Below are positions 108 to 31,262 of a stretch of DNA of 47,893 nucleotides, piece by piece. This DNA comes from Clostridia bacterium (GTDB taxonomy: Bacteria > Bacillota > Clostridia > Peptostreptococcales > Acidaminobacteraceae), in assembly GCA_016937975.1 (NCBI GenBank), contig JAFGVN010000134.1, forward strand, positions 1-47,893. Direction: 5' to 3'. Numbering within the stretch: position 1 is the first letter of the stretch; the number at the start of each line of letters is the position of its first letter. The translations under genes and the position numbers were made by a program. The notes under the pieces were generated by a model, which was given only the letters and a program-made list of their open reading frames with translations, was not told the origin of the DNA and made no database searches.

Positions 108-1838
108 ATGAAAGACATGATTTTTATTCTCATACTAACACTGATTACAGCTTACAATATTTCAATCATTTTCTTGGGTTATAAAAAATCTTGGACCAAT
201 GTGTTGAACTATAAATATTCTTATATGTTGGCTATTGTTTACAATGTTAATTTAATTCTCTCTGAACTTTCTCATAGTATTATAATGGAGAAATCAATTC
301 CAATCATCAGTTTATTTTTTTTCAGACAGTTGATTATTGATTTTTACAGAAGTATGGAAATGAAAATAAGCAATACAATAAAAATCATATGGTTTCATGT
401 AACGCCATTGGTATTTCTGTTTTTTGTTTCAGTTGATATTTTAAGGGGAATAGCAAACAAAGTAGGTGTTTCGGGAGATATTGGGGCTTATGATCTTCTA
501 ATGATTATTGGGGTTATATTATATCAATTATCTGTATTTGTGGATTTGTTTAAGATTAATTATCTAAGCAGAAAAGACTCCTTACCGAGGTATCAACAAG
601 TTTATTTGGCACACATGCTTGTAAATTTCCTTTTTGTATTTATAACTTTAGGTGTATTTATTTCAAAACAAATTGAAGAAAATATTATTATCTCAGGTCT
701 GTTGTTTACTTTGTATCTTATTTTTTTAACTGTTAATTACATAAGACCAGAATGGTTACCTCACGCCTATACTGTAAGATTAATGGTACATGATCATCAA
801 ATCAATAAAGAAAAAACCGTTCGTTCAAGGGATAGAAGATCTTTAGATGGTTTAACAGGTGTTTTTACCAGAGAATACTTTTTAAGATATATAGAGACTC
901 TAGATACCAATGATGATGCGCTTTCTATTATTTTAATGCAAATGACAGGATTAAAATTAATTAATGAAAGCTTTGGTTTTGATGTTGGTGATGAAATCGT
1001 TCAGAAAAACTCCGTCATAATTTGTGACCTTTTTCCAAATGCCACTGTTGCTCGAATGACAGGTAGTTTATTTGCCATTATGACGAGTAAGGAAAGTGAA
1101 GAGGAAATCAGTCAGAAAATAAGAAAAATTAAGGAATTATCCAATAGCAATCAAGATTACATTATTCACTTGAATTTTGGATATTATATGAGGAAAAATG
1201 AAGATCTATTACCTCTTGATGTTTATTTAAGAAGTGTGGAAGAATTGTATTACAATCGTTTGATTATCAACCAAAAACATCAAAATCAAATTGCTGATAT
1301 GTTAGTAAAGAATCAAAGTAAATCTTCAGTATTGCTAAATGAACATTTAGAAAGATGTGCTCATTTGGCTTCAATGTTTGGCGAATTTTTAAAGTTATCT
1401 GATGAGGAAATTTGTGATATTCGAAATGGTGCACTATTACATGATATTGCACTGGTTAAAATGCCAACCATAGAATCTTATCATGTTTCATTTAGTGACG
1501 ATTTTGAAAAAAGGGTGTATGAAAGTCATGTTTCCAAAGGTTATGATATTGCCATTGAATCAGGCATTAATCCTTCAACGGCTCAAGGGATATTACATCA
1601 TCATGAAAAGTATAATGGTTCCGGTTATCCCCATGGTTTAAAGGGTGAAGCTATTCCCTTTGTAGCACAGGTCATATGTTTGATCGATCACATCGATATA
1701 ATTTTCAACACGGGAAAGAAAATCAAAAAAGTGAGAGATCATCTTATTTCAAAGATTGGAGTGGAATTTTCATCAGAGATGGTTTATAATATGATAGCGT
1801 TTTTAGAAGAAGAAGGAATGATTGAGGCGGATATATGA
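108..1838 (+). CDS. Membrane protein with degenerate GGDEF and HD-GYP domains
   Basis: Probable cyclic-di-GMP-related signalling protein of 576 aa. The first ~215 residues hold about six or seven hydrophobic segments, ending in a 7TM-type boundary (IRPEWLP). A GGDEF-like domain follows (DGLTG near 248), but the signature site reads TGSLF near 320, so cyclase activity is unlikely. The C-terminal HD-GYP-like domain (~405-540) keeps HD near 446, HHE near 500 and NGSGYP near 505. The usual HDIGK lysine is replaced (HDIAL), and the later D-x-yDA region is altered, so phosphodiesterase activity is uncertain. I chose ATG 108 over the adjacent TTG 105 because AAGGAGGA ends 7 bases upstream. It overlaps rimM by 4 bases, so it is translationally coupled to a translation-factor operon. 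A sensor role is inference. Confidence 0.85.
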   Translation: MKDMIFILILTLITAYNISIIFLGYKKSWTNVLNYKYSYMLAIVYNVNLILSELSHSIIMEKSIPIISLFFFRQLIIDFYRSMEMKISNTIKIIWFHVTPLVFLFFVSVDILRGIANKVGVSGDIGAYDLLMIIGVILYQLSVFVDLFKINYLSRKDSLPRYQQVYLAHMLVNFLFVFITLGVFISKQIEENIIISGLLFTLYLIFLTVNYIRPEWLPHAYTVRLMVHDHQINKEKTVRSRDRRSLDGLTGVFTREYFLRYIETLDTNDDALSIILMQMTGLKLINESFGFDVGDEIVQKNSVIICDLFPNATVARMTGSLFAIMTSKESEEEISQKIRKIKELSNSNQDYIIHLNFGYYMRKNEDLLPLDVYLRSVEELYYNRLIINQKHQNQIADMLVKNQSKSSVLLNEHLERCAHLASMFGEFLKLSDEEICDIRNGALLHDIALVKMPTIESYHVSFSDDFEKRVYESHVSKGYDIAIESGINPSTAQGILHHHEKYNGSGYPHGLKGEAIPFVAQVICLIDHIDIIFNTGKKIKKVRDHLISKIGVEFSSEMVYNMIAFLEEEGMIEADI

Positions 1839-2329
1839 AATTAATTAGAATTGGTAAAATTGTTAATACTCAAGGTTTAAAAGGCGATGTAAGAATTTAT
1901 CCTGATACAGATTATGTGGAGAGATTTGAAGAATTGGATTATCTTTATATTGAAAACGAATCTGAACCACTTAAAATTTCTTCTGTGCGATATAAAAAGA
2001 ATCTAGCCATTGTGAAATTTAAAGGTTTGGATCATATCAATGATGTTGAAAAATATAAAAATAGAATCGTTTATACTGAAAAGTTGGATTATGATGATTT
2101 AGAAGAAGATCGTTATTATGTGGAAGATTTAATTGGTTTAAAAGTAGTAGATGCTGTTCAAGGTGAAATTGGCATTTTAATAGATATCCTTCAAAATCCT
2201 GCCCATGATTTATATGTTGTGAAAACAAAAGATAAAGAAGTGATGATTCCTGCTGTACAAGAATTTATTCAAGATGTTGACCTGGAAAACAAAATCTTGC
2301 ATGTTACTTTAATTGAGGGGTTATTATAA
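1835..2329 (+). CDS. rimM: Ribosome maturation factor RimM
   Basis: RimM binds ribosomal protein S19 and assists maturation of the 30S subunit head. At 164 aa the length is typical. The N-terminal beta-barrel opens with RIGKIVNTQGLKGDVRI, the family signature (glycine-rich GLKG turn). The PRC-barrel domain occupies roughly residues 92-164, with YYVEDLIGL at its start and MIPAVQEFI near the end. The start ATG lies in an ATGA overlap with the upstream gene, and the stop overlaps the trmD start by one base (TAATG), so three genes are read as one coupled unit. RimM next to TrmD is the standard bacterial arrangement. Confidence 0.96.
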   Translation: MKLIRIGKIVNTQGLKGDVRIYPDTDYVERFEELDYLYIENESEPLKISSVRYKKNLAIVKFKGLDHINDVEKYKNRIVYTEKLDYDDLEEDRYYVEDLIGLKVVDAVQGEIGILIDILQNPAHDLYVVKTKDKEVMIPAVQEFIQDVDLENKILHVTLIEGLL

Positions 2330-3063
2330 TGATTTTTCATGTGTTAACTTTATTTCCTGAAATGTTTGAGACTTTAAATCATAGTATTTTAAAAAAAGCT
2401 CAGGAAAAAGACTTAATACAAATTCATACGGTGAACATCAGGGACTTTTCAGAAAATAAACATAAGAAAGTTGATGATTATCCTTATGGTGGTGGTGCAG
2501 GTATGGTCATGCAGGCACAACCTATCTATAATGCTTATAAAAGTTTAGATACAAAGGCACGTGTGATTTTTATGACCCCTAAGGGTAGAACCTTTGATCA
2601 AGCCCTTGCCAATGAACTGTCAAATGAAGAAGAGCTTATTTTTTTGTGTGGTCATTATGAAGGTGTGGATCAAAGAATAATTGATTTGATTGTAACCGAT
2701 GAAGTTTCTGTAGGTGACTTTGTCTTAACCGGTGGTGAATTACCTGCAATGATTATGATAGATGCCATTGCTAGATTACGTGAAGGGGTACTTGGTAAAA
2801 ATGTTTCTTATGAAGATGAAAGTCATTATTCTGGACTTTTAGAATATAATCATTTTACGAGACCACCTGTTTTTGAAGATTTGAAAGTGCCTGAAATACT
2901 TTTTTCTGGTCATCATCAGAAGATCGATGCATATCGATTGATGGAAAGTTTGTATCTTACTGAACTTAGAAGACCAGATATGTTTAAAAAATGGTGTGAA
3001 GGACCAAGAACCAAGGAAGAAAAGAAAATTCTGAAAAAATATCTAGACAATAATACAAAATAA
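2329..3063 (+). CDS. trmD: tRNA (guanine-37-N1)-methyltransferase TrmD
   Basis: Uses S-adenosylmethionine to methylate G37 of tRNAs that read codons beginning with C, which prevents +1 frameshifting. At 244 aa it has the family length. The SPOUT trefoil-knot motifs are visible: DYPYGGGAGMVMQ near residue 50, LCGHYEGVDQRI near 110, and VGDFVLTGGELPAM near 130. The C-terminal domain carries NHFTRPP and ILFSGHH. It starts one base inside the rimM stop. A promoter for the next gene (rplS) begins inside its last codons, so rplS can be expressed apart from the trmD transcript. Confidence 0.97.
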   Translation: MIFHVLTLFPEMFETLNHSILKKAQEKDLIQIHTVNIRDFSENKHKKVDDYPYGGGAGMVMQAQPIYNAYKSLDTKARVIFMTPKGRTFDQALANELSNEEELIFLCGHYEGVDQRIIDLIVTDEVSVGDFVLTGGELPAMIMIDAIARLREGVLGKNVSYEDESHYSGLLEYNHFTRPPVFEDLKVPEILFSGHHQKIDAYRLMESLYLTELRRPDMFKKWCEGPRTKEEKKILKKYLDNNTK

Positions 3064-3072
3064 TTGTATAAT
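3044..3072 (+). promoter_or_regulatory. Vegetative promoter for rplS
   Basis: TAGACA at 3044-3049 (5 of 6 to TTGACA), a 17-base spacer, and a perfect TATAAT at 3067-3072. It overlaps the end of trmD and would start transcription near 3079, 84 bases before rplS. The match and spacing are good; activity is inferred. Confidence 0.75.
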
Positions 3073-3078
3073 GTTTTA

Positions 3079-3162
3079 GGTGCGTCATAAAAGCACTGAC
3101 GAACGTTCCGCTGGTGGAAAAGGTTCATTAAGAACGTTTAGGAAGTATATGGAGGAAGTCCT
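3079..3162 (+). promoter_or_regulatory. Probable ribosomal protein L19 leader (rplS 5' UTR)
   Basis: The predicted untranslated leader between the rplS promoter and its start codon can form a 7-bp stem, AACGTTC (3102-3108) with GAACGTT (3132-3138), enclosing TTCCGCTGG-like sequence. A short upstream stem pairs CGTC (3083-3086) with GACG (3098-3101). Low-G+C Firmicutes are known to carry an L19 autoregulatory leader at this place. I recognise position and general form but could not run a covariance search. Confidence 0.6.
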
Positions 3163-3513
3163 ATGAACAACATTATTAAAAGTATTGAGCAAGCACAGCT
3201 TAATGAAAACAGACCACATTTCCAAGTTGGTGATACTGTAAAAGTTCACTTAAGAATTGTGGAAGGTAAGAGAGAAAGAATTCAGATTTTCGAAGGCTTG
3301 GTTATGAAAAGACAAGGCGGCGGCGTTAGAGAAACTTTCACAGTAAGAAAACTTTCTTCAGGCGTTGGCGTTGAAAAGACTTTACCACTTCACTCACCAA
3401 AAGTTGAAAAAATCGAAGTAGTTAGACTTGGTAAAGTTAGAAGAGCTAAGATCAACTACATTAGAGACAGAGTTGGTAAATCAGCTAAAGTTAAAGAAAG
3501 AAGAACTAGATAA
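3163..3513 (+). CDS. rplS: 50S ribosomal protein L19
   Basis: L19 lies at the 30S-50S interface. At 116 aa it is full length, with recognisable blocks [22 protein letters not shown] and the C-terminal [18 protein letters not shown]. The start ATG follows GGAGGAAGTCCT. It has its own promoter and leader upstream and a hairpin terminator directly downstream, so it forms a separately controlled single-gene unit as well as the tail of the rimM-trmD transcript. Confidence 0.98.
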
Positions 3514-3520
3514 TCTTTCT

Positions 3521-3549
3521 AAAAGTGATGACTTAGTCGTCACTTTTTC
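3521..3549 (+). terminator. Intrinsic terminator after rplS
   Basis: AAAAGTGATGAC, loop TTA, GTCGTCACTTTT form a stem with one G-U pair, followed by T-rich CATTTTT. It lies 8 bases after the rplS stop. Confidence 0.88.
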
Positions 3550-3651
3550 ATTTTTAGAAAAAAGTCAAGGTATGAGGTTCTAATGAGAATATTATAAAAA
3601 ACATTATGACTTCAAATGAATTATGTTAAGATAGATATACGGAGGTGGATT

Positions 3652-4524
3652 ATGCATATTAACTGGTATCCTGGGCATATGAAAAAAACAAAAGAGTTGA
3701 TTCAAGGCCATTTGAAATTAGTCGATGTCGTTGTTGAATTACTTGATGCTAGAATTCCAATCAGTAGTAGAAATCCTCAAATTGATGAGATTTTAGGTCA
3801 AAAGCCTAGAATTGTATTAATGAATAAATTTGATCTATGTGATCAAAGAATTTTAAAGGATTGGATTGATTATTTTAAAGAACAGGGTATTGTTGCAATC
3901 CCTATTAATTCCATATCAGGTGACGGTGTTAAGGATTTGTTAAAGCAAGTTAAAATTGAAACAAAACCTTTACTAGATAAATTGAAGGCTCAAGGAAGAG
4001 CAACACGTGCGATCAGAATGATGATTGTAGGGATTCCAAATGTTGGGAAATCCTCTTTAATCAACAAACTTGTTGGTAAGAAGGCGACACGTACTGGAAA
4101 CAAGCCAGGCGTTACAAAGGGTAAACAATGGATTAGAGTGCGTGATGATATTGAGTTGTTTGACACACCAGGTATTTTATGGCCCAAAATTGATGATAAA
4201 GAAGCAGGACTGAATTTGGCGTTTACAGGTGCTATTAATGACGATACACTCATTATCGAAGATATTGCTTTTGAATTGATTAAGCGTCTAATGAAGCGTT
4301 ATCCTGATGTTTTGACAAAACGATATGATTTGGAAATGGATTTTGAGACAGTCGAACCCATTGAAGTATTAGATGCCATTGCAAAGAAAAGAAATTGTCT
4401 GGAACGGAATAAGGATGTCGATTATTTTAAACTTGGAAAGTTGATTATTACAGACTTTAGAAATGGTAGATTAGGACATTTAACTTTAGAAAAACCATCA
4501 GAAATGGATCAGAGAAATGGCTAA
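3652..4524 (+). CDS. rbgA: Ribosome biogenesis GTPase RbgA (YlqF)
   Basis: A circularly permuted GTPase needed for late 50S subunit assembly. The permuted motif order is visible: G4 (LMNKFDLCD) and G5-like (INSISGDGV) come before G1 (GIPNVGKSSLINKL) and G3 (DTPGILWP). The protein is 290 aa. I chose ATG 3652 because it follows GGAGGTGG by 4-5 bases and gives the family start MHINWYPGHMKK; an upstream in-frame ATG at 3616 would add 12 atypical residues and lacks a Shine-Dalgarno site. It follows the rplS terminator, so it needs its own promoter, which I could not identify with confidence. It overlaps rnhB by 8 bases. Confidence 0.95.
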   Translation: MHINWYPGHMKKTKELIQGHLKLVDVVVELLDARIPISSRNPQIDEILGQKPRIVLMNKFDLCDQRILKDWIDYFKEQGIVAIPINSISGDGVKDLLKQVKIETKPLLDKLKAQGRATRAIRMMIVGIPNVGKSSLINKLVGKKATRTGNKPGVTKGKQWIRVRDDIELFDTPGILWPKIDDKEAGLNLAFTGAINDDTLIIEDIAFELIKRLMKRYPDVLTKRYDLEMDFETVEPIEVLDAIAKKRNCLERNKDVDYFKLGKLIITDFRNGRLGHLTLEKPSEMDQRNG

Positions 4525-5281
4525 ATCAATACAGATAATCAAAGAGGAATTAAGTGTATTAGATCTTAAGGAACAAATTGCTTATCTTGAATCTTTAAAG
4601 GATGATACCCGTGGGGGTGTAGTCAAACTAGTTGAGAAGGTAAAAAGGGATGTTGAAAAGCAAATTGTTGAATTAAAAAGACTCGAGACTTTAACCCTTT
4701 ACGAAAAGAAATTAATCCATAAGGGATTTCAGAAAATCGCAGGTATCGATGAAGTTGGAAGAGGTCCGCTGGCAGGTCCAGTAGTGGCTTGTGCTGTGGT
4801 TTTGAATCGCTATGATCTGTATGAACATATTAATGATTCTAAAAAAGTAAGCAAAAAGAATAGAGAAATTCTTTTTCAAAAAATATCCGATACGGCTGAA
4901 GATGTGGCCTTTGGTATGGCTTCTCCAGAGGAAATAGATGAACTTAATATTTTGAATGCTACAAAATTAGCGATGAAGAGAGCTATAGAAAATTTAAAGG
5001 AAAAACCAGACCATTTACTAATTGATGCAGTGAAATTAGACGATATATCTATTGAACAAACAAATATTATCAAAGGTGATGAAAAGTCTATGACTATTGC
5101 AGCAGCCTCTATTATGGCAAAAGTAACCCGAGATGCAATGATGGAGGAGTTGGGAAGAGCCTATCCCGAATATGATTTTGAAAACAATAAGGGATATGGT
5201 ACGGCTTCCCATTATAAAGGTTTAAATGCTGTAGGAATTTCTCCTATACATAGACGATCGTTTGTAAAGGATTTTCTATGA
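4517..5281 (+). CDS. rnhB: Ribonuclease HII
   Basis: Cleaves RNA in RNA-DNA hybrids and at single misincorporated ribonucleotides. The protein is 254 aa. A ~70-residue N-terminal helical extension, typical of the Firmicute enzyme, precedes the catalytic block GIDEVGRGPLAGPVVA, which supplies the first Asp and Glu. Further acidic residues come from LLIDAV and the SIMAKVTRDAMM helix. The C-terminus has NKGYGTASHYKGL and HRRSFV. Translation starts inside rbgA, and the stop overlaps the next gene's start (ATGA), so these genes are coupled. rbgA-rnhB is conserved in B. subtilis and relatives. Confidence 0.96.
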   Translation: MAKSIQIIKEELSVLDLKEQIAYLESLKDDTRGGVVKLVEKVKRDVEKQIVELKRLETLTLYEKKLIHKGFQKIAGIDEVGRGPLAGPVVACAVVLNRYDLYEHINDSKKVSKKNREILFQKISDTAEDVAFGMASPEEIDELNILNATKLAMKRAIENLKEKPDHLLIDAVKLDDISIEQTNIIKGDEKSMTIAAASIMAKVTRDAMMEELGRAYPEYDFENNKGYGTASHYKGLNAVGISPIHRRSFVKDFL

Positions 5282-6729
5282 GAATTACACAACAACAAAT
5301 TCAAACTCAGTTACTCAACGTAAAAAACCAATCGAAAGGAATGCCACAGATGAAAACTGGGGCCATTTTGAATGGTAAAATATTAGAAATACAAGGAAAT
5401 GCGCTTTTAATTGCATTGGCAGAAGGAGGTACTTTACGTGCTGAAGCCAATGATGTTGAGCGTTTTTTTGTTAATCAAAATATTAACTTTGAAGTCGTAA
5501 ATGATCAAGCTGAAGTTGTACAAGTTGCTTTACTTAGTGAAAAAACAGTTGAAGAGATTAAAGTTCAGTTGCAATCTATTGATTTAGAACACAATGAAGA
5601 AAATGTTAAAGCTTATGAAGTTTTAAAAGCGTTAGATTTACCAGTAACAAAGGATCATATAATTCAACTGACTCAAAACCTTAAGCAACTGAATGTTTTG
5701 TTTTCTACATTAAAGGAGTTTGTGCAGACTGAAAAAAGTGAAAGTGAAATCATAACTAATCTTGCTAAAGAACTGGGTTATGAATCAGAAAAAGCTTTGA
5801 TGAATACAGATTTAAAATCAGTCGTCATACAACTGCTTAAATCTTATGATTTAAAAGAAGGAGAAGTAAGAACGTCTAATATTGATATAAAAGAGACGCC
5901 AACTCAATCTTTGAATCAAGAAGAAACACCTGTAAAACCACAGGCACTCAAACCCCTTGAAATGGTGGTAAAAAATATTTTTGGTTTAAAAACTACGGAA
6001 GCTTTAAAACCTGAACTAAACGATACCTTGGATAAGCTTGGTCAGCTTCTCAAACTTGAAAAGCCTGTAACATTAAACAACTTACAGATCCTAGATAGAT
6101 TGTTTGACACAGAGAAAATAGATCAGCAAATAAAAACTTTGTTGCCAATGCTGGAAAAGGATTATCCTGAGCCTAAATTATTAGCTTTATTAAGGGGTCT
6201 TATGCCACATCAGTTTGAAAATAAAAATGAGGTGACAAATTTCTTTAATGCTTTAATAAATCAGTTGTCAGAGGCTGAAAAATTTGTATCAGAACATACG
6301 AAGGATCAAGTTGTTAAATTACAGGAATCTGTAAAATTCATGGAAAAAGAGCAAAGTGACTTTACTTGGATACAGGTGCCAGTTCAAATGAGAAATGAAA
6401 CAAAACATTTGGACATCATGATTAAAAATAATGAATCAAGTAAAACAAAACTTTCGAAGCATCAAGCAAAGATACTTATTAGTTTGGATACCCATTACTT
6501 AAAAAGAGTACAAAGTTTAATAGAAGTGAATTACAAGCAATTAAACATACACTTTAAAGTAGAAAATGAAAATATTCAAAAGTTAATTGAAAGTCAATTA
6601 GCTGGACTAAGAACCTATTTTGAAGATTATTTTGAAAAGATTCATATCGATGTTAAAACCACGCAGTTAGAGAATTTAAAGTCCTTTGTTGATCCTGGCT
6701 ATGATGGTTATTTGAATTTGAAGGTGTAA
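5278..6729 (+). CDS. FliK-like protein of the ylqG position
   Basis: A 483-aa protein with no confident named function. Its C-terminal ~120 residues (ILISLDTHYLKRVQSLIEV, then a helix and a beta-like end) resemble the Flg_hook domain of FliK hook-length proteins. An N-terminal segment, GAILNGKILEIQGNALLIAL, looks like a small beta-barrel. The middle is charged and helical. It overlaps rnhB by 4 bases and is followed after 3 bases by an FlhB-C-like gene, matching ylqG-ylqH after rnhB in B. subtilis. This makes a second FliK/FlhB-like pair beside the canonical fliK and flhB of the main operon. The role is unknown; possibly an export-linked ruler or regulator. Confidence 0.75.
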   Translation: MRITQQQIQTQLLNVKNQSKGMPQMKTGAILNGKILEIQGNALLIALAEGGTLRAEANDVERFFVNQNINFEVVNDQAEVVQVALLSEKTVEEIKVQLQSIDLEHNEENVKAYEVLKALDLPVTKDHIIQLTQNLKQLNVLFSTLKEFVQTEKSESEIITNLAKELGYESEKALMNTDLKSVVIQLLKSYDLKEGEVRTSNIDIKETPTQSLNQEETPVKPQALKPLEMVVKNIFGLKTTEALKPELNDTLDKLGQLLKLEKPVTLNNLQILDRLFDTEKIDQQIKTLLPMLEKDYPEPKLLALLRGLMPHQFENKNEVTNFFNALINQLSEAEKFVSEHTKDQVVKLQESVKFMEKEQSDFTWIQVPVQMRNETKHLDIMIKNNESSKTKLSKHQAKILISLDTHYLKRVQSLIEVNYKQLNIHFKVENENIQKLIESQLAGLRTYFEDYFEKIHIDVKTTQLENLKSFVDPGYDGYLNLKV

Positions 6730-6732
6730 GTG

Positions 6733-7014
6733 ATGAAAGAAATAAAGGAAAAAAGAAAAATTGCAACAGCTATAAAATATGATCCTGATAAACAAATCGC
6801 ACCATCTTTGGTAGCGAAGGGAAAAGGAATAATTGCTGAGAATATTATTAACAAAGCAAAGGAACATCATGTAAAAACTTACGAGGATGAAAAGTTAAGT
6901 CAGCAGTTATATCAACTTTCCATAGGAGATGAAATTCCACCAGAATTGTATCATGTCGTTGCTAGAGTTTTAGCTTTTATTGCAGAAGTGGATGAGAAAC
7001 AGCATAAATTTTGA
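6733..7014 (+). CDS. Stand-alone FlhB C-terminal-like protein (YlqH/FhlB type)
   Basis: A 93-aa soluble protein resembling the cytoplasmic domain of FlhB. IKYDPDKQIAPSLVAKGKG aligns with the segment after the cleavage loop of full FlhB (VYNSSLGASPKVLAKGQN), and ELYHVVARVLAFIAEVDE aligns with its terminal helix DLYQAVAEVLAYVYSIKD. The self-cleaving NPTH motif is absent: the protein begins at about the point where the cleaved fragment of FlhB starts. I chose ATG 6733 rather than the adjacent GTG 6730. It is probably co-translated with the FliK-like gene upstream. FhlB-type proteins can stand in for the FlhB C-terminal fragment; a role in export specificity here is inference. Confidence 0.85.
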   Translation: MKEIKEKRKIATAIKYDPDKQIAPSLVAKGKGIIAENIINKAKEHHVKTYEDEKLSQQLYQLSIGDEIPPELYHVVARVLAFIAEVDEKQHKF

Positions 7015-7090
7015 TTTTTTTAGTCTTTTTTTAATTCCTTCTATTCAATTTCTTTATCCTCATTTAAAATAGTGTTATAGGGGGAAAATT

Positions 7091-7516
7091 ATGTATAAGT
7101 ATTCAAAAAAAGCATTAATAACGGATTTATTATTTTTATTGGTTCTACTGTATCTTATTGTTTTTGTCGACGTAGATATAATCTATAAGGTGGTTTTAGT
7201 TGCTGTTGCAGCTATGATTGTTAGAGATAATCTAAAGGAAATGCAGGCTACATTTGAGCTTGCTGGTGACAAAATGATTGTCAGAAGAAAAGATAAAGTT
7301 GTAAGAGAAATCAAGTATAAAGATATGAAATACTTGACAATTACAAGAAAAAATAAGAAGTGGGTCGTTATTGCAGATGATGATAAAATTTTATTTACAA
7401 TCAAACCTAAAATCGAATCTTATGAAAAAATGGTTTCTGATTTAATAAGATTAAATCAAAGTAATAAAAAAATGGAAGTGCACGATTATATCAAAAGAAC
7501 TTATAAAGATCAATAA
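7091..7516 (+). CDS. Small membrane protein of unknown function
   Basis: A 141-aa protein I do not recognise. Residues ~8-45 form one or two hydrophobic segments (LLFLLVLLYLIVFVDVDIIY, then VVLVAVAAMIV). A soluble domain follows, rich in alternating hydrophobic and charged residues (MIVRRKDKVVREIKYKDM, WVVIADDDKILFTI), which suggests a small beta-sheet resembling bacterial PH-like domains. The start follows GGGGGAAAATT. The stop codon lies inside a terminator hairpin, so this gene ends a transcript. It may be read through from the YlqH-like gene 76 bases upstream or from a weak TAAAAT -10 at 7065. Confidence 0.75.
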   Translation: MYKYSKKALITDLLFLLVLLYLIVFVDVDIIYKVVLVAVAAMIVRDNLKEMQATFELAGDKMIVRRKDKVVREIKYKDMKYLTITRKNKKWVVIADDDKILFTIKPKIESYEKMVSDLIRLNQSNKKMEVHDYIKRTYKDQ

Positions 7517-7538
7517 ACGGGAAACCGTTTATTTTTTT
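7512..7538 (+). terminator. Intrinsic terminator containing the upstream stop codon
   Basis: A perfect 9-bp stem, AATAAACGG / CCGTTTATT, with a GAAA tetraloop and a T-run. The TAA stop of the preceding gene (7514-7516) is within the left arm. Confidence 0.92.
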
Positions 7539-7592
7539 ACATTATAATTGGAAAAAATTTACATTAATGATATGCTTATTTGGGAGGTGTGT

Positions 7593-8369
7593 ATGAAAAA
7601 ATATTTTATTCATTTATCACAAACGCAATATGCAGGTGAGATGCTTTGTAAAAAAATAAATCAAAAGAATATCAATTGGTTAAAAGATAAAATACAAGAA
7701 GAACCTATATCAATAGAAGAAATCTTACAAACCATGGAAAAAAATCAAATAAAAATCCTTGATAACCCATTTCCAGAGATCAATGATTCACCACCCTTTC
7801 TCTATATAAAAGGAAATGGTCCCTTAACCAATAAACGGGTTGCTATTATTGGTTCCAGAAAGTGTAGTGACTATGGAAAGAAAATTGCTGAGGAATTAGC
7901 CTATAAATTGGCTAAAAGAGGTGTAACCATCATCAGTGGGTTAGCATATGGTATCGATAAAGCTGCTCATATTGGGGCCTTAAAAGGTGGTGGGGTAACT
8001 GTTGGTGTGCTGGGGTCAGGTATTTTAAACTGTTATCCAAAAGAACATCAATGGTTATATGACAAAATTGTTAGAAATGGTTTTATTATTTCGGAATATG
8101 GTTTATATACACCCCCTTTGTCAAAAAACTTTCCTTTTAGAAATAGAATTATATCTGGTCTTTCAACAGCTATTGTTGTCGTTGAAGCCAATATGAGATC
8201 AGGAACTATGATTACAGTACGACATGGCTTAAATCAAGGCAAAGATATTTTTGTGATACCAGGGAGCATATATTCTCCATTAAGTAAGGGAACAAACCAG
8301 TTAATTCAAGAAGGTGCATCGATTATTGTAGATCTTGATGAATTTATTGAACAAATTGTAAAACCTTGA
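7593..8369 (+). CDS. dprA: DNA processing protein DprA (Smf), short form
   Basis: DprA binds incoming single-stranded DNA and loads RecA during natural transformation. The Rossmann-fold core is clear: RVAIIGSRKCSDYG, SGLAYGIDKAAHIGAL, GVLGSGI, FPFRNRIISGLS, RSGTMITVRHGLNQGK and the closing GTNQLIQEGA. At 258 aa it is shorter than many homologues. The N-terminal SAM-like part is brief and the C-terminal winged-helix domain is missing, since the protein stops just after the core. I chose ATG 7593 because it follows GGGAGGTGTGT; an upstream TTG (7548) lacks a ribosome site. A TATAAT at 7543-7548, just after the terminator, may be its -10, but no good -35 is visible. Confidence 0.93.
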   Translation: MKKYFIHLSQTQYAGEMLCKKINQKNINWLKDKIQEEPISIEEILQTMEKNQIKILDNPFPEINDSPPFLYIKGNGPLTNKRVAIIGSRKCSDYGKKIAEELAYKLAKRGVTIISGLAYGIDKAAHIGALKGGGVTVGVLGSGILNCYPKEHQWLYDKIVRNGFIISEYGLYTPPLSKNFPFRNRIISGLSTAIVVVEANMRSGTMITVRHGLNQGKDIFVIPGSIYSPLSKGTNQLIQEGASIIVDLDEFIEQIVKP

Positions 8370-8377
8370 AATTAGTC

Positions 8378-8405
8378 TTGAAATCCAAAAACAATTGTAT
8401 ATAAT
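8378..8405 (+). promoter_or_regulatory. Distal promoter candidate upstream of topA-codY
   Basis: TTGAAA at 8378-8383 (5 of 6), a 16-base spacer, and a perfect TATAAT at 8400-8405, starting 8 bases after the dprA stop. It would give a leader of about 175 bases that includes the CodY-box candidates. Confidence 0.55.
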
Positions 8406-8439
8406 GAATACTATATTCAGAATTGAATGCTAAACTAAT

Positions 8440-8463
8440 TTTTTTCTGACAATTCAGAATAAA
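8440..8463 (+). promoter_or_regulatory. Candidate overlapping CodY boxes upstream of topA-codY
   Basis: TTTTTTCTGACAATT (8440-8454) matches the CodY consensus AATTTTCWGAAAATT at 12 of 15 positions. A second, weaker motif (8449-8463, 9 of 15) overlaps it by 6 bases, the arrangement described for B. subtilis CodY operators. A related ATTCAGAAT also occurs at 8415-8423. AT-rich background makes chance matches possible; the overlap and location strengthen the case. Confidence 0.5.
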
Positions 8464-8465
8464 GC

Positions 8466-8496
8466 TTGACATTTGACTCATAATCCTATTTACTAT
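8466..8496 (+). promoter_or_regulatory. Weak middle promoter candidate upstream of topA
   Basis: A perfect TTGACA (8466-8471) with TACTAT (8491-8496) 19 bases on. The spacing is long. It sits directly after the CodY-box candidates, so if used it would be well placed for control. Confidence 0.3.
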
Positions 8497-8526
8497 ATAA
8501 GTGATGTTTAATATATGAGATTTTTC

Positions 8527-8542
8527 CTTGCATGTTTGCAAG
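8527..8542 (+). repeat. Inverted repeat at the proximal topA promoter
   Basis: CTTGCA, spacer TGTT, TGCAAG: a perfect 6-bp inverted repeat covering the -35 (TTGCAT) and part of the spacer of the proximal promoter. It could be an operator; no regulator is identified. Confidence 0.5.
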
Positions 8543-8555
8543 TTTCTTGTATAAT
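8528..8555 (+). promoter_or_regulatory. Proximal promoter candidate for topA-codY
   Basis: TTGCAT (8528-8533, 3 of 6), a 16-base spacer, and a perfect TATAAT at 8550-8555. Transcription would begin near 8562, about 25 bases before the topA start and just upstream of its GGAGGTG ribosome site. Confidence 0.55.
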
Positions 8556-8586
8556 ATACATTGCTGGAAAAACAACGGAGGTGTAC

Positions 8587-10656
8587 ATGTCAAAATATTT
8601 GGTTATTGTTGAATCGCCTGCAAAGGCCAAAACAATAGAAAAGTTCTTGGGAAAGAACTATACAGTCTTAGCATCAATAGGCCACATTCGAGATCTACCT
8701 AAGAGCAAGATGGGCATTAATATAGAAGAAGACTTTGAACCTAACTACATTAACATTAGGGGCAAGGGTGATGTTATTAAGGATCTTAAGAAATACGCAA
8801 AAAAAGCAGATAAAGTTTTTCTTGCAACAGACCCCGATCGCGAAGGTGAAGCAATTGCATGGCACTTAGCGAATATACTTGGAATTGATTTAGATGAAGA
8901 AGTTAGAGTCACTTTTAATGAAATTACAAAAAACACCGTAAAGGAAGCCATTAAACATCCAACAACCATTAAAACGGAATTGGTAGATGCACAACAAGCG
9001 AGACGTGTTCTGGATCGTTTGGTGGGATATTCAATATCACCTCTTTTATGGCGGAAAGTTCGAAAGGGTTTAAGTGCTGGTAGAGTTCAATCGGTTGCAA
9101 CAAAAATGATCTGTGATCGTGAAGCCCAAATTAAAGCTTTTGATTCTGAAGAATACTGGACTTTAGACTTTAATTTTCAAAATCAAGACAAGAAAAGCTT
9201 TAAAGGTAGTTATATTGGATTAGGTCAAGAGAAAGCTGCCATCAAGAACGAAGTAGATGTAAAGCGTATTATGTCTGATTTGGATAAAAATCAATTCATT
9301 GTTGAAAATGTTCAGATGAAAGATAAAATTAGAAAACCCCAGCCCTGTTTTACAACAAGTAGGTTACAACAGGAAGCTTCTAATAAATTAGGTTTTTCAA
9401 CGAAGAAGACAATGATTGTTGCACAACAGCTTTATGAAGGTATAAAATTGCCTAAAATTGGTAGTGTAGGTTTGATTACTTACATGAGAACTGACTCTAC
9501 TAGAATTTCTGAAGATGCAAAAACAGCAGTTTTGGAATTTGTAGAAGAAAATTTTGGTAAAGCATATTTAGGTGAAACTGTTGTTTCTAAGAAAAGTAAA
9601 GGTGCACAAGAAGCCCATGAGGCAATTCGTGCAACAGATGTCTTAAGAACACCTGATTCCATCGAAGCGCATTTGACGAAAGATCAGATGAAGTTATATA
9701 AATTAATCTGGGAAAGATTTGTTGCTTCATTAATGGCGCCGGCTAGAGTTGAAGGTCTAACAGTTGATATTAGAAACAAGGAGCATTTGATTCGTTCAAA
9801 TGGTCAAAGACAAGTCTTTGATGGTTTCTTAAAAGTATATTCATTTGGTACTTCAAATGATAAAATACTTCCTGAAATTTCTATTGGTGAAAAATTAATG
9901 TTGGAAGAAATGTTGCCAGAACAACATTTCACACAACCACCACCAAGATACACTGAAGCTACCTTGGTTAAGGAAATGGAAGAAAAGGGTATCGGTAGAC
10001 CGAGTACCTATGCACCAACCATAAGCACAGTAATCAGCCGTGGCTATGTTGGCAGAGATAAGAAAAATTTATATCCCACAGAATTAGGTGAGATTATCAA
10101 TGAAATCATGGAGAACTACTTTAAGCGAGTGATTGAAGTTAATTTTACAGCGGATATGGAAATGCAGTTTGATGATATTGAAGAAGGTAAAATTCCATGG
10201 AAAGATGTGATTAAGAGTTTCTATGGTTCATTTGAAACTTTAATCAGCAAAGCTGAAGAGGATATTGAAAAAGTTGATTTGTCTGAACCAACAGATATAC
10301 CTTGTGAAGTCTGTGGTAGTTTTATGAACATCAAACATGGTCGTTTTGGAAAATTCCTGGCATGTAGCAATTATCCCGAATGTACTAACACGAAACCTAT
10401 TCTTAAGACGATTGATGTAAAATGTCCAGAATGTGGTGAAGGCGATGTGATTGAGCGAAAAACTAAGAAACTTAAAACTTTCTATGGTTGTTCAAGATTC
10501 CCTGAGTGTAATTTTATGTCATGGCATAAGCCTGTAGGAAAGAAATGTCCGACTTGTAACAAGTCGATGATAGAATATAAAACAAAGAAGAAACATGAGT
10601 ATAGATGTACCGATAAAGAATGTGGGTACAGCGAAGAAATTATGGATGAGAACTAG
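8587..10656 (+). CDS. topA: DNA topoisomerase I
   Basis: A type IA topoisomerase that relaxes negative supercoils. The protein is 689 aa. The N-terminal Toprim domain has YLVIVESPAKAKTIEKFLG and LATDPDREGEAIAWHLA. The active-site tyrosine is in GLITYMRTDSTRIS. The C-terminus carries three four-cysteine zinc ribbons: CEVC...CSNYPEC, CPECGEG...CSRFPEC and CPTC...CTDKEC. I chose ATG 8587 because it follows GGAGGTGTAC and gives the family start MSKYLVIVESPAKAK. codY follows after 8 bases and is almost certainly cotranscribed, so promoter elements upstream of topA also set CodY levels. Confidence 0.98.
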   Translation: MSKYLVIVESPAKAKTIEKFLGKNYTVLASIGHIRDLPKSKMGINIEEDFEPNYINIRGKGDVIKDLKKYAKKADKVFLATDPDREGEAIAWHLANILGIDLDEEVRVTFNEITKNTVKEAIKHPTTIKTELVDAQQARRVLDRLVGYSISPLLWRKVRKGLSAGRVQSVATKMICDREAQIKAFDSEEYWTLDFNFQNQDKKSFKGSYIGLGQEKAAIKNEVDVKRIMSDLDKNQFIVENVQMKDKIRKPQPCFTTSRLQQEASNKLGFSTKKTMIVAQQLYEGIKLPKIGSVGLITYMRTDSTRISEDAKTAVLEFVEENFGKAYLGETVVSKKSKGAQEAHEAIRATDVLRTPDSIEAHLTKDQMKLYKLIWERFVASLMAPARVEGLTVDIRNKEHLIRSNGQRQVFDGFLKVYSFGTSNDKILPEISIGEKLMLEEMLPEQHFTQPPPRYTEATLVKEMEEKGIGRPSTYAPTISTVISRGYVGRDKKNLYPTELGEIINEIMENYFKRVIEVNFTADMEMQFDDIEEGKIPWKDVIKSFYGSFETLISKAEEDIEKVDLSEPTDIPCEVCGSFMNIKHGRFGKFLACSNYPECTNTKPILKTIDVKCPECGEGDVIERKTKKLKTFYGCSRFPECNFMSWHKPVGKKCPTCNKSMIEYKTKKKHEYRCTDKECGYSEEIMDEN

Positions 10657-10664
10657 GAGGAAAC

Positions 10665-11450
10665 ATGTTAAAGGAGTTACTAATAAAAACTAGAAAGTTA
10701 AATGCGATTTTACAAGACCGTGGTGATGTGGAAGTATCATTCAACGAGTTATGCGATACATTGGCAGATATTTTAGAAGTAAATGTGTATGTTATAAACG
10801 TTAAAGGTAAAATCTTGGGTTCTAAAATGCTGGATTCAAACACAAGTTCAATCTTAGCAGACCCTGAGACAGGCATTTTATTTTTCTCAGATGAGCATAA
10901 CGACAACATGTTAAATGTAGGTGAAACTGTACCAAACTTAACAAGAGAAGAAATTTCTGCAATATTCACTGGTGATACTGAAACGAACAAGAAGAATGTT
11001 TCTATCGTTCCAATTAAAGCAAAAGGTGAAAGAATTGGTACCTTGGTTTTAGCAAGACCAGGTGAATTGTTTGATGATAGTGATATGATTTTGGCTGAAA
11101 ATGCAGCAACCGTTGTATCTATGGAAATTATGAGAGCTAAAAACTTGGAAAAAGCAGCAGTAGACAGAAAAAGAGCGGTAGTTAAAATGGCTATTGAGTC
11201 ATTGTCTTATTCTGAATTAAAAGCTGTAGAGCATATTTTCAAAGAATTAGAAGGTGATGAAGGTTTATTAGTAGCTTCAAAAGTAGCTGATCGTGTGGGC
11301 ATTACAAGATCTGTTATTGTAAATGCTTTAAGAAAATTCGAGTCTGCTGGTGTAATTGAATCTCGTTCATTAGGCATGAAAGGTACTCACATCCGTATTC
11401 TAAATGAAGAATTATTACCTGAATTATCACAAATCAAAAGAAAATACTAA
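10665..11450 (+). CDS. codY: GTP- and branched-chain-amino-acid-sensing repressor CodY
   Basis: A global regulator that binds DNA when GTP and Ile/Leu/Val are plentiful; it represses nutrient-limitation genes and, in B. subtilis, flagellar genes. At 261 aa it has the family length. The N-terminal GAF ligand domain covers ~1-155. The winged helix-turn-helix near 200-245 contains ASKVADRVGITRSVIVNALR and ESAGVIESRSLGMKGTHIRI. It starts 8 bases after topA with AGGAGG, and a strong terminator follows. The next gene is flgB, as in B. subtilis. CodY-box candidates sit on both sides: before topA and before flgB. Confidence 0.98.
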   Translation: MLKELLIKTRKLNAILQDRGDVEVSFNELCDTLADILEVNVYVINVKGKILGSKMLDSNTSSILADPETGILFFSDEHNDNMLNVGETVPNLTREEISAIFTGDTETNKKNVSIVPIKAKGERIGTLVLARPGELFDDSDMILAENAATVVSMEIMRAKNLEKAAVDRKRAVVKMAIESLSYSELKAVEHIFKELEGDEGLLVASKVADRVGITRSVIVNALRKFESAGVIESRSLGMKGTHIRILNEELLPELSQIKRKY

Positions 11451-11454
11451 AAAT

Positions 11455-11489
11455 ATAAAATCTGCTTTTGCAGATTTTATTTGTTTTTT
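11455..11489 (+). terminator. Intrinsic terminator after codY
   Basis: An 11-bp stem, ATAAAATCTGC / GCAGATTTTAT, with a TTTT loop, followed by TTGTTTTTT. It separates topA-codY from the fla/che operon. Confidence 0.93.
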
Positions 11490-11514
11490 GAGAGTGTCTT
11501 CCACAGTGTAGAAA

Positions 11515-11529
11515 TTTTTTCATAAAATT
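11515..11529 (+). promoter_or_regulatory. Candidate CodY box upstream of the fla/che promoter
   Basis: TTTTTTCATAAAATT matches AATTTTCWGAAAATT at 12 of 15 positions. It lies inside an 8-bp inverted repeat (GAAATTTT, TTCAT, AAAATTTC; 11511-11531). The site ends 19 bases before the -35 of the fla/che promoter. CodY is known to repress this operon in B. subtilis; binding here is inferred. Confidence 0.55.
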
Positions 11530-11548
11530 TCTATATATTGTATTTTTC

Positions 11549-11577: not shown

Positions 11578-11622
11578 ATACTGGATAAAGCATGTAAATA
11601 GGAATAAAAACCACTTATTTGT

Positions 11623-12060: not shown

Positions 12061-12068
12061 GTGATTAA

Positions 12069-19243: not shown

Positions 19244-20698
19244 ATGAACATTGGAGAATTGAAGCTGCAAAATGTGTTTGCCAATTCTCAACTACAATTG
19301 AATAATGATTGGTTAGTTTCCAAAAAAAGTTCATCAGAATTTAAAGATGTGCTTGAATCAAAAACCGCTCAAAATTCGGATGTAGATCCGAAATCGAAGT
19401 ACAAGGGTTTGAACAATGACACGATGAATCATTATGCAAAGGACAAAATAAATGTCAGAGAGCATACGGATCAGAGAAGAGACTTGAACGAACTTAAGGA
19501 AGCGATTCGAGAAAAGATTGCACAAAACAAATTGCAAAAGGAAACGGACAATGATCAGCCCGTACAAAGTCTAGATGGTCGATCAAATTTACTTGAGAAA
19601 CTTCAAGAAAAAATTGAGGACTTGGAGCAAATGATCAAAGAGGAACTTGGTATTCCAGATGATATTGATGCTTTAGAATTATTGGCTTCTCTTATGGACA
19701 TATCTGTAGAACAATTAATGTTGCAACTTACAACATCTAATGATGTAGAAATGGATATGGACCAGTTGGTAGAACAATTAACAGATTTGTTTGCTTCTGA
19801 AGAAGTTAACACAATGAAGTTGGTTGAAAACCTTAAAACTTTAGTAGAGATGATGCCGGAAGATAAAGCAGATATGTTTAAGGAAGTTCTGACTGAAGTT
19901 CAAAGGCAATTGGAATCACCGGAGGCTAAAGAAGCTGTACAGCAGATACTGGATTTTAAGCCTGTGGAAGCAGAAAAAGTTGTGGTTGAAACACCAGTTT
20001 CTGAAGTTGTAACGGAGGAAGTTAAAACAGAAGTTGCAAAAATGGCTGAACCGGTAGTAGAAGAAGTTGTCCCTAAAGAAGAAGTTTTGGAAACCGATAA
20101 AAAAGTAGAGGCAAAAGAAGAATCCTCAAACACTTCACTTGCATTAGACTCAGATGAAGACTCAACCCTAGAGGTTTCAAAAGTAACAGAAACTGAAGGT
20201 GAAGATTTCGATATTGAAGAACAGATTAACCTAATGAAAAATGAAACGGCTGTGATTTCAAGTGGCAAAATCGAACCGAAAGGTGTTGTTGGAAGAAGTA
20301 TCATGAATCAAGTGATTCAAAGCACGAAGATGAGTGTGAATTTATCGGACCAAGGTTCTGAGATTTTGATTAAATTAAATCCGAAAAATTTAGGTAATGT
20401 CGCTTTGAAAATGTCCTTTGACAAAGGTGTTTTACTCGCAGAAATTCAAGTAGAAAACCAAGCTGTAAAAGGTGTGATTCAATCTAATATAGCAGATTTA
20501 AGAAATGCTTTGAAACAAGAAGGATATATAGTTGGTAATTTAGATGTTTCAGTTAATCAAGGGGACAAGGAAAATCAAGAACAGCAATTTACTCAGCATT
20601 TCAAAAGACAAATATTCTTAGATCCAACAGATGATGTTGAAGAAACATTCCAAACGGTGGTTTCAAACTCGGAACAAGTAATAGATTATCTCGCATAA
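19244..20698 (+). CDS. fliK: Flagellar hook-length control protein FliK
   Basis: The molecular ruler that ends hook growth and switches export specificity through FlhB. The protein is 484 aa. A long acidic, repetitive Glu/Val-rich middle (~245-330) precedes the conserved Flg_hook domain (~365-450): EILIKLNPKNLGNVALKMSF and GVIQSNIADLRNALKQEGY. A Gln-rich tail follows. It starts with AGGAGGT 7 bases upstream and is followed by flgD. This is the canonical FliK; a second FliK-like protein lies at 5278-6729. Confidence 0.95.
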   Translation: MNIGELKLQNVFANSQLQLNNDWLVSKKSSSEFKDVLESKTAQNSDVDPKSKYKGLNNDTMNHYAKDKINVREHTDQRRDLNELKEAIREKIAQNKLQKETDNDQPVQSLDGRSNLLEKLQEKIEDLEQMIKEELGIPDDIDALELLASLMDISVEQLMLQLTTSNDVEMDMDQLVEQLTDLFASEEVNTMKLVENLKTLVEMMPEDKADMFKEVLTEVQRQLESPEAKEAVQQILDFKPVEAEKVVVETPVSEVVTEEVKTEVAKMAEPVVEEVVPKEEVLETDKKVEAKEESSNTSLALDSDEDSTLEVSKVTETEGEDFDIEEQINLMKNETAVISSGKIEPKGVVGRSIMNQVIQSTKMSVNLSDQGSEILIKLNPKNLGNVALKMSFDKGVLLAEIQVENQAVKGVIQSNIADLRNALKQEGYIVGNLDVSVNQGDKENQEQQFTQHFKRQIFLDPTDDVEETFQTVVSNSEQVIDYLA

Positions 20699-30167: not shown

Positions 30168-31262
30168 ATGTGGATCGAAAAATTTAATCTTCAGTTCTTT
30201 GCTGAAGAAAAAACTGAACAAGCCACACCGAAGAAGAAAAGGGAAGCAAGAGAAAAAGGACAAGTACCTCAATCTAAAGATGTACCCCAAGCTATTGCAT
30301 TAATTGTCATTATCATGACGATTCAGTTGACCAGTGAATGGTTCACAATGCACATGATGGATATTTACCTCATGGTCAACGAAAAAATACCTGAAGCGTA
30401 TGCACTTTATGATATGAATAACTTGATGCAAATGTTCTCATTTCTCCTTTTGAAAACGATTTATATTATTGCTCCGATTCTACTAGCAGCATTATTAACA
30501 GGTGTTTTAGGTTCGTATGTTCAAATTGGTTTTTTATTTACTGTTGAACCCTTAAAGCCTAAACTGAATAAAATAAGTCCCATTAGTGGTTTTAAGCGTT
30601 TATTCTCATTAAAATCATTAGTTGAAATGGTAAAAGCCATCGCTAAAGGATTAGTTTTAGTTTACATTGTTTATGCTTACTTAAATGATCAAACCAATGC
30701 AATTATTGGTTCCTACGAGTTAACAATAGAAAACATTATAGCTTTGATGTGGGATTTTACTATTAATATTGTTATACGCTGTGCTGTATTTTTACTTGTC
30801 GTTGCTTTTTTAGACCTAGCTTATAAGAGATGGCAACATAACAAGGATCTTAAGATGTCAAAAAAAGAAATTAAAGATGAATATAAACAAACCGAAGGCG
30901 ATCCTATGCTTAAAGGTAAGATTCGTGAGAAACAAAGGCAAATGGCCATGAGTCGGATGATGCAAGATGTACCTGATGCAGATGTTGTCATTACGAATCC
31001 AACGCATTATGCCGTTGCAATTGTTTATAATTCAAGTCTGGGTGCGTCACCAAAGGTGTTGGCAAAGGGACAGAACCTAATTGCACAAAATATTAAAAGA
31101 ATAGCTATTGATAACAATGTAACCATTGTTGAGAATAAACCACTTGCTCGTGCACTATTTGCAGCTGTAGAGGTTGGGGATTTTATTCCAGTAGATTTAT
31201 ACCAAGCTGTAGCGGAAGTGTTGGCTTATGTTTACAGCATTAAAGATAAAAAAGTAACATGA
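30168..31262 (+). CDS. flhB: Flagellar export switch protein FlhB
   Basis: Controls substrate specificity of the export gate, 364 aa. The N-terminus has EEKTEQATPKKKREAREKGQ, the FlhB signature, followed by four membrane helices. The C-terminal cytoplasmic domain has the self-cleavage site NPTH at residues 277-280, then YAVAIVYN and the ending VDLYQAVAEVLAYVYSI. FliK triggers its specificity switch. Compare the separate FlhB-C-like protein at 6733-7014, which lacks NPTH. Confidence 0.98.
   Translation: MWIEKFNLQFFAEEKTEQATPKKKREAREKGQVPQSKDVPQAIALIVIIMTIQLTSEWFTMHMMDIYLMVNEKIPEAYALYDMNNLMQMFSFLLLKTIYIIAPILLAALLTGVLGSYVQIGFLFTVEPLKPKLNKISPISGFKRLFSLKSLVEMVKAIAKGLVLVYIVYAYLNDQTNAIIGSYELTIENIIALMWDFTINIVIRCAVFLLVVAFLDLAYKRWQHNKDLKMSKKEIKDEYKQTEGDPMLKGKIREKQRQMAMSRMMQDVPDADVVITNPTHYAVAIVYNSSLGASPKVLAKGQNLIAQNIKRIAIDNNVTIVENKPLARALFAAVEVGDFIPVDLYQAVAEVLAYVYSIKDKKVT

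What the first reader, a model, noticed from the sequence alone, without database searches (positions are those of the whole stretch)
5278..7014. Second FliK-like/FlhB-C-like pair outside the main flagellar operon
A FliK-like protein and a soluble FlhB C-terminal domain are coupled next to rnhB, while canonical fliK and flhB lie in the fla/che operon. The pairing mirrors the ruler/switch partnership, and its function is poorly understood. It could be an alternative specificity-switch module.
Basis: partly seen in the sequence, partly recalled or inferred. Interest (0 to 1): 0.5.

Follow-up and report, generated by a model that had tools for sequence, protein, structure and literature searches.

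The report
Second flagellar switch protein pair
Next to a housekeeping gene this flagellated bacterium carries an old, separately inherited copy of the two protein parts that tell a growing flagellum to stop building its hook, and the copy has its own distinct 'key' ending, which makes its still unknown job directly testable.

Summary
In detail: 5278-6729 encodes a FliK-like protein (YlqG) and 6730-7014 a soluble FlhB C-terminal-domain protein (YlqH/FlhX), coupled after rbgA-rnhB; canonical fliK and flhB lie elsewhere in the window. The pair follows flagella: a short FlhB copy was assigned in 136 of 188 FlhB-bearing genomes of a phylum sample (4 more have a longer-tailed version) and in 0 of 31 without FlhB. 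In 28 sampled FlhB-bearing genomes without it, no YlqG was found beside rnhB either. The pair stays coupled in at least five gene neighbourhoods, including FliS-flagellin loci and, in Pseudomonas, beside ccmA. YlqH looks like one old paralogue family (split 100/97), with no NPTH and a one-residue deletion in 127 of 127 rows. YlqG shares FliK's switch domain, but most carry an OB-like N-terminal barrel not seen in FliK. New here: YlqG ends in hydrophobic-D-x-[R/K]-[V/A/I] (R/K at -2 in 105 of 118), family FliK in hydrophobic-[N/D]-Y-[L/Y/F]-[A/G] (R/K at -2 in 0 of 19). In Salmonella these last five residues are proposed to flip the switch. I propose a second, private lock-and-key pair. FlhX itself is known; function here is untested.

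The parts
5278..6729 (+). ylqG: FliK-like switch protein, 483 aa
5341..5541 (+). YlqG residues 22-88: OB-like N-terminal beta barrel (predicted)
   Evidence: AlphaFold2 block means 84-95 over residues 31-80; structural neighbours mostly S1/OB domains, Z 7-8; profile at E<1e-3 in 98 of 118 YlqG and 0 of 19 family FliK
6361..6660 (+). YlqG residues 362-461: T3S4/Flg_hook-like switch domain
   Evidence: hhalign E 1.4e-5; PscP SS domain 5cuk Z 6.1; FliK C domain 2rrl Z 4.6
6712..6726 (+). YlqG last five residues (LNLKV): switch pentapeptide of the YlqG type
6730..7014 (+). ylqH (FlhX-like): soluble FlhB C-terminal domain, 94 aa, no NPTH
4517..5281 (+). rnhB, overlaps ylqG by 4 nt
3616..4524 (+). 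rbgA (ylqF), first gene of the likely operon; terminator-like hairpin 3521-3547 before it
19244..20698 (+). canonical fliK (ends VIDYLA), comparison
30168..31262 (+). canonical flhB with NPTH, comparison

Best explanation
YlqG and YlqH are a second, privately matched lock-and-key pair of the flagellar export gate. Shown here: YlqH is a free-standing paralogue of the FlhB C-terminal domain that begins within about ten residues of where the cleaved FlhB fragment begins, keeps the residues I recall as the early-substrate docking pocket, and is nearly always coupled to a protein with the FliK switch domain and its own type of C-terminal pentapeptide. Inferred: YlqH can sit on the export gate in place of FlhB's own cleaved C-terminal domain (for example after FliK has ejected it) and keeps or restores early (rod/hook) export; YlqG is the dedicated protein that binds YlqH through its switch domain and last five residues and takes it off again, or holds it until needed. 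The pair would let the gate be re-locked or re-opened independently of the FliK ruler; in this genome it is encoded in what looks like a housekeeping (rbgA-rnhB) operon.
For: Occurrence with flagella: short copy in 136 of 188 FlhB-bearing genomes versus 0 of 31 without. Joint absence: 28 FlhB-bearing genomes without YlqH show no YlqG downstream of rnhB with two profiles. Coupling kept in different neighbourhoods. FlhB C-domain sequence and fold; FliK switch-domain profile and fold. Pentapeptide: D/N at -4 in 117 of 118 and R/K at -2 in 105 of 118 YlqG, R/K at -2 in 0 of 19 FliK. Salmonella: FlhB's cleaved C-terminal domain is an inhibitory part removed in a FliK-dependent way, and the last five FliK residues are proposed to do it (PMC13344023: abstract and two sections read). 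The H. [quoted passage not shown] title only, seen in two reference lists).
Against: I found no experiment on any YlqG (searches; open-access library only). The read-through fusion model (pLDDT 62.8, pTM 0.53) does not establish a docked complex. 48 of 188 FlhB-bearing genomes have no second FlhB-type protein. One short copy has no YlqG upstream (L128), and in four genomes of one genus the FlhB-like protein is longer and no YlqG was seen in the 5 kb read. An OB-like N-terminal domain is unexpected in a secreted switch protein. B. velezensis canonical FliK lacks the FliK-type tail, so tail and function do not map simply. The Pseudomonas pair has neither R/K at -2 nor D at the YlqH position matching 88.
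Confidence: 0.45

Rival explanations
1. Decoy or anti-switch: YlqH is a soluble bait that binds FliK (or its tail) in the cytoplasm and delays switching; YlqG titrates YlqH. No seat on the gate is needed.
For: YlqH is free of a membrane part and keeps the recalled FlhB pocket residues; the pair sits in a housekeeping operon and no exact flagellar-sigma-type promoter match lies near it.
Against: YlqH and FlhB differ consistently (K/R to I/L at position 40, mostly K to D at 88, one-residue deletion), and YlqG and FliK tails differ, which points to separate partners rather than one shared partner.
Confidence: 0.2
2. Filament-side variant: the pair tunes export of flagellin or of special filaments after the switch, not the hook-length step.
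For: Pairs with long YlqG (691 and 883 aa) stand directly before fliS and flagellin in G079 and Alkalihalophilus pseudofirmus, and one with over 1,200 aa stands near them in G124.
Against: The window's pair and most others seen are next to rnhB; genomes with two short copies are few (4 of 219).
Confidence: 0.15
3. Plain back-up: redundant spare copies of FliK's switch domain and FlhB's C-terminal domain with no step of their own.
For: HP1575 'spare part' title; shared domains.
Against: Separate ancestry in the tree, family-wide differences and a different pentapeptide are not expected of interchangeable copies.
Confidence: 0.13
4. A non-flagellar role (for example in sporulation or general secretion).
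For: Housekeeping operon rbgA-rnhB.
Against: 0 of 31 FlhB-less genomes have it; in the family 1 of 11 genomes without full FlhB has it, and that one is 70% complete.
Confidence: 0.04

Closest known systems
FlhX / YlqH / HP1575 (NCBIfam TIGR00789 flhB_rel)
   Same: Free FlhB C-terminal domain without membrane part; the window protein falls on the same side of the tree as B. velezensis YlqH and the P. aeruginosa short protein, against all 16 FlhB rows.
   Different: Window protein scores 89.6 bits against the TIGR00789 cut-off of 117.35; 'spare part' activity untested here.
FliK hook-length control protein (Pfam PF02120)
   Same: Switch domain by profile and predicted fold; a hydrophobic-D/N start of the C-terminal pentapeptide.
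   Different: OB-like N-terminal domain not found in FliK; basic residue at -2; outside the fla operon; score below the Pfam cut-off.
flhX-fliK pair of Nitratiruptor (PMC9321776, passages read)
   Same: flhX and a fliK named together outside the large flagellar cluster.
   Different: Another phylum; no comparison of tails or domains in the passages seen.
Pseudomonas aeruginosa FliK (492 aa)-EscU-like (111 aa) pair beside ccmA
   Same: Two genes overlapping by 4 nt, one-residue deletion shared, second to a canonical fliK and flhB of the species.
   Different: Tail VDETA; K instead of D at the position of YlqH D88; OB profile not significant.

Membership tests
FlhX/YlqH (soluble FlhB C-terminal homologue) | homologous to the FlhB C-terminal domain alone, no membrane part | tested here: met
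   94 aa; Bac_export_2 columns 260-335; FlhB C-domains of the PDB by sequence
FlhX/YlqH (soluble FlhB C-terminal homologue) | same clade as named YlqH (B. velezensis) apart from FlhB | tested here: met
   71 short against 16 FlhB rows, one split, 100/97, 200 of 200 bootstrap trees; few columns, bootstrap not settled, root unknown
FlhX/YlqH (soluble FlhB C-terminal homologue) | score over the TIGR00789 curated cut-off | tested here: not met
   89.6 versus 117.35 bits; 0 of 3 further Bacillota genomes pass it, 2 of 14 control genomes do
FlhX/YlqH (soluble FlhB C-terminal homologue) | can replace the FlhB C-terminal domain in export | not testable with these tools
   reported for HP1575; title only
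FlhB | membrane domain and NPTH autocleavage site | tested here: not met
   only the last 76 of 335 Pfam columns; no NPT[HY] in 124 unique short proteins; NPTH in 35 of 35 FlhB rows, which were picked by an NPT search, all 31 family loci tried yielding one
FliK | C-terminal switch (T3S4/Flg_hook) domain | tested here: met
   hhalign YlqG versus FliK prob 80, E 1.4e-5 over 75 columns; YlqG C-domain profile finds 19 of 19 family FliK and those of E. coli, P. aeruginosa and B. velezensis; the Pfam score itself is below the cut-off
FliK | FliK-type N-terminal ruler region | tested here: inconclusive
   YlqG has an OB-like N-terminal domain whose profile finds 0 of 19 FliK at E<1e-3; that FliK's N-terminus is the ruler is from passages of PMC6972891; secretion of YlqG not testable
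FliK | switch pentapeptide of the type found in FliK of the same family | tested here: not met
   pattern in 18 of 19 FliK, 0 of 118 YlqG

The most novel reading that the evidence does not exclude
Flagellated bacteria carry a second, orthogonal export-switch channel: a detachable FlhB-type lock (YlqH) and its own FliK-type key (YlqG) with a separate five-residue recognition code, so that one export gate can be locked and unlocked twice, or re-locked after the FliK step, by a portable two-gene module.
Probability: 0.3. Interest if true: 0.82.

Novelty: new variant of a known kind. Interest (0 to 1): 0.58.

Why it matters
How the flagellar export gate changes from hook to filament is an old question, and the newest model (FliK-dependent removal of the FlhB C-terminal domain) was built in Salmonella, which I recall as lacking this pair. 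A widespread second pair with its own pentapeptide gives a natural experiment: swap five residues between FliK and YlqG, or the matching surface between FlhB and YlqH, and see whether partner choice follows. It also explains a gene pair that public annotation can name misleadingly (one YlqG is called 'glycosyl transferase').

Tried and rejected

Whole-YlqG fold search: the rows listed align to residues of about 1-141, nearly all to 21-89, mostly S1/OB domains; Z 7-8 is in the range that may mean only a common arrangement. No FliK structure was in those two listings; with the smaller fused model 5cuk and 2rrl were, also below Z 8.

Charge pairing of the basic tail residue with YlqH D88: 101 of 120 pairs have R/K with D, but the exceptions do not co-vary cleanly, so this is only a lead. 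That table still includes L102 and L128, whose upstream ORF is not YlqG, and near-duplicate loci.

Flagellar sigma promoter: one exact match of TAAA-N13-16-CCGATA in the window, at 20074 inside fliK (chance mean 0.26); none at ylqG. Sigma-70-like sites are at chance level in 1700-12200 (49 found, 45.0 expected).

Family-built YlqG profile: at E<=1 it missed the partners of several loci of other families, so the absence test was repeated with the switch-domain and N-domain profiles of the wider alignment; again only L175 (G036) matched significantly.

Dropped rows and corrections: from the 135 short ORFs, partners were kept if within about -60 to 300 nt and at least 140 aa (131), then made unique by their last 120 residues and L102 and L128 removed (118). 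One search's background count included YlqG itself and was redone (5 of 623, one of the five being the YlqG of L165, which lies in reversed order). E. coli FlhB was first read in a wrong frame and corrected. G156, first counted as having a short copy, has only an NPTH-bearing FlhB piece at a contig end and was taken out; the first p value was replaced. The 35 FlhB rows include one genome twice (L003 and L056).

Full report
WHAT IS THERE. Behind rbgA (3616-4524) and rnhB (4517-5281) lie ylqG (5278-6729, overlapping rnhB by 4 nt) and ylqH (6730-7014). A terminator-like hairpin precedes rbgA (3521-3547) and another follows the next small gene (7512-7533), so the pair probably rides in a housekeeping operon (inference). 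YlqG has a sub-threshold Flg_hook match (24.7 bits, cut-off 29.8); YlqH matches only the last part of FlhB. The genome belongs to the family of named Fusibacter genomes (contig lengths such as 635,936 and 127,545 are shared) and has exactly two PF01312 matches, full FlhB and YlqH.

OCCURRENCE WITH FLAGELLA. In 219 phylum genomes (own genome included, drawn with at least 90% completeness), 188 have a PF01312 match over the cut-off and 31 do not (30 without match, one, G064, below the cut-off). Of the 188, 141 have two or more matches and 47 one, always of FlhB size by E-value. I assigned a short copy to 136: the window's own, 118 others by an open frame of at most 163 aa (tally) and 17 more of at most 178 aa. 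G156, an eighteenth, proved to be a piece of FlhB with NPTH. Four genomes of one genus (G048, G091, G128, G207) have a second FlhB-like protein without NPTH in ORFs of 183-452 aa and are counted apart. So 136 (or 140) of 188, against 0 of 31 FlhB-less genomes; Fisher p 1e-15, not corrected for relatedness. FlhB stands for flagella here; other flagellar genes were not tallied. In the window's family, 41 genomes: full FlhB in 30, short copy in 25 of these (24 listed, plus G036, whose ylqH is cut by a run of N); of 11 without full FlhB one has the short copy, a 70%-complete genome.

THE PAIR GOES TOGETHER. rnhB was sought in 40 genomes (39 with a match), and up to 3 kb downstream of it read in 36 (L177 has 1,700 and L201 623 bases). 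Of 29 FlhB-bearing genomes without a listed short copy, a YlqG profile matched only G036, which proved to have the pair; the other 28 and the seven family genomes without full FlhB had no match. As that profile is narrow, I repeated the test with the wider switch-domain and N-domain profiles: again G036 alone, the next best at E 0.42. In one genome (L184) rnhB is followed directly by sucC and a gene of sucD size, the B. velezensis order without the pair. YlqG elsewhere in those genomes was not searched for. Conversely, from 135 short ORFs in the loci in hand come 118 unique YlqG partners, rnhB above them in 78 of 80 that reach far enough (exceptions L072, L098). L128 has a short copy without YlqG.

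NEIGHBOURHOODS. (i) rnhB, as here. (ii) FliS-flagellin-DUF327: Alkalihalophilus pseudofirmus (883 aa YlqG, L252; FliS, flagellin and DUF327 by Pfam) and G079 (691 aa, L249; FliS by Pfam, the others by eye); G124 (L247, over 1,200 aa) is alike by eye with one gene between; G018 (L251) has DUF327 without flagellin. The long YlqG of L252 and L249 have no Flg_hook match but match the YlqG switch-domain profile at 3e-17 and 7e-19. (iii) Beside an AMMECR1/LigB gene: YlqG of only 153 and 198 aa, little more than the switch domain, both over the Flg_hook cut-off (L208, L245; neighbour by Pfam in L245, by eye in L208). (iv) Reversed order next to a rod-gene-like ORF (L206; Flg_hook 21.9 and Flg_bb_rod 18.2 bits, both below their cut-offs). 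(v) P. aeruginosa beside ccmA, apart from canonical fliK and flhB. A further pair in G178 (L246) is not by rnhB either. The common minimum is switch domain plus FlhB C-domain.

AN OLD PARALOGUE. A tree of 16 FlhB C-domains (family, E. coli, P. aeruginosa, B. velezensis, an actinomycete) and 71 short proteins parts the two by one branch (100/97; 200 of 200 bootstrap trees; few columns, bootstrap not settled, long branches for the P. aeruginosa and L213 rows). All 127 short rows lack one residue that 35 of 35 FlhB rows have. NPT[HY]: none of 124 unique short proteins. Four residues that I recall as the early-substrate pocket (A286, P287, A341, L344; [quoted passage not shown] Position 88 is D in 118 of 127 short and K in 25 of 35 FlhB rows; position 40 is I/L in 119 of 127 against K/R in 35 of 35.

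YLQG IS FLIK'S SWITCH ON ANOTHER BODY. Flg_hook matches 17 of 19 family YlqG at E<=0.1, DUF6240 5 of 19. The YlqG switch-domain profile finds 116 of 118 YlqG, 19 of 19 family FliK and the E. coli, P. aeruginosa and B. velezensis FliK. The 50-row AlphaFold2 model (mean pLDDT 68.2, pTM 0.30) has a confident barrel at about residues 30-85, low confidence over most of 190-280 and the switch domain at 362-461. The barrel resembles S1/OB domains; in the fused 13-row model the switch domain resembles the PscP SS domain (Z 6.1, 69 residues, 3.0 A) and FliK's (Z 4.6, 66 residues, 2.8 A), and YlqH resembles FlhB C-domains (Z up to 6.3). Such Z values are only suggestive; the sequence profiles carry the claim. 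The barrel profile is in 98 of 118 YlqG (a number of the misses are cut or short) and in 0 of 19 family FliK at E<1e-3; it is marginal or absent in the P. aeruginosa, B. velezensis and some long partners.

THE TAIL CODE. YlqG has a hydrophobic residue at -5 (117 of 118 by my set), D/N at -4 (117), R/K at -2 (105); 0 of 19 FliK from the same family have R/K at -2, and 18 of 19 have a FliK pattern that no YlqG of 118 has (p 4e-15, not corrected for relatedness). Background: 5 of 623 other complete ORFs match the YlqG pattern, one of them a YlqG in reversed order. E. coli FliK ends GVDIFA, P. aeruginosa FliK LVDYYA, its pair protein WVDETA, B. velezensis YlqG KVDVKI, and its canonical FliK NEMEEE. 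In Salmonella the last five FliK residues are proposed to meet FlhB's cleaved domain and flip the switch by ejecting it (PMC13344023: abstract, sections 14 and 15, and passages); a search of that text for 'FlhX' and 'spare' gave none.

READING. Two private pairs, FliK/FlhB and YlqG/YlqH, share one export gate. Shown: co-occurrence, coupling, separate clades, distinct tails. Inferred: contact, seat on the gate, direction of effect. In the family, the five FlhB-bearing genomes without the short copy (G001-G004, G031) also have a different, N-terminally extended FlhB, which fits, but does not prove, co-evolution with the gate.

NOVELTY. FlhX, and flhX with fliK, are in print. My ten paper searches in an open-access library showed me nothing on YlqG function, the tail difference or the OB-like domain; most subscription papers are not covered, and Wand 2006 could not be read.

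Noticed in passing
L242:11161-12501 (B. velezensis fliK): Canonical FliK ends in NEMEEE and lacks the FliK-type switch pentapeptide, while the same record's YlqG has a YlqG-type one (KVDVKI). Perhaps Bacillus shares the switch between the two.
   Followed up: no
L049, L050, L053, L054, L018 (FlhB of G031, G003, G002, G001, G004): The family genomes without ylqGH carry a diverged FlhB (35-42% identity to the window's) with an N-terminal extension of about 35-40 residues.
   Followed up: partly
L252:3216-8629; L249:1767-7391: Very long YlqG-like protein plus short FlhB-like protein directly before fliS, flagellin and a DUF327-type gene.
   Followed up: partly
L258-L261 (G048, G091, G128, G207): In one genus the free FlhB C-domain protein has a long Gly/Ala/Pro-rich tail, and no YlqG was seen in the 5 kb read.
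   Followed up: partly
L218:4301-6004: YlqG is annotated 'glycosyl transferase' (WP_110085557.1), by its place and switch-domain match a likely misnomer.
   Followed up: partly
window 7091-7516: Small protein (141 aa) with a hydrophobic N-terminal part after ylqH and no clear Pfam family.
   Followed up: no
L217, L218, L219, L220: Several PLSDB 'plasmids' hold flagellar, ccm or housekeeping regions and look like chromosome pieces labelled as plasmids.
   Followed up: no
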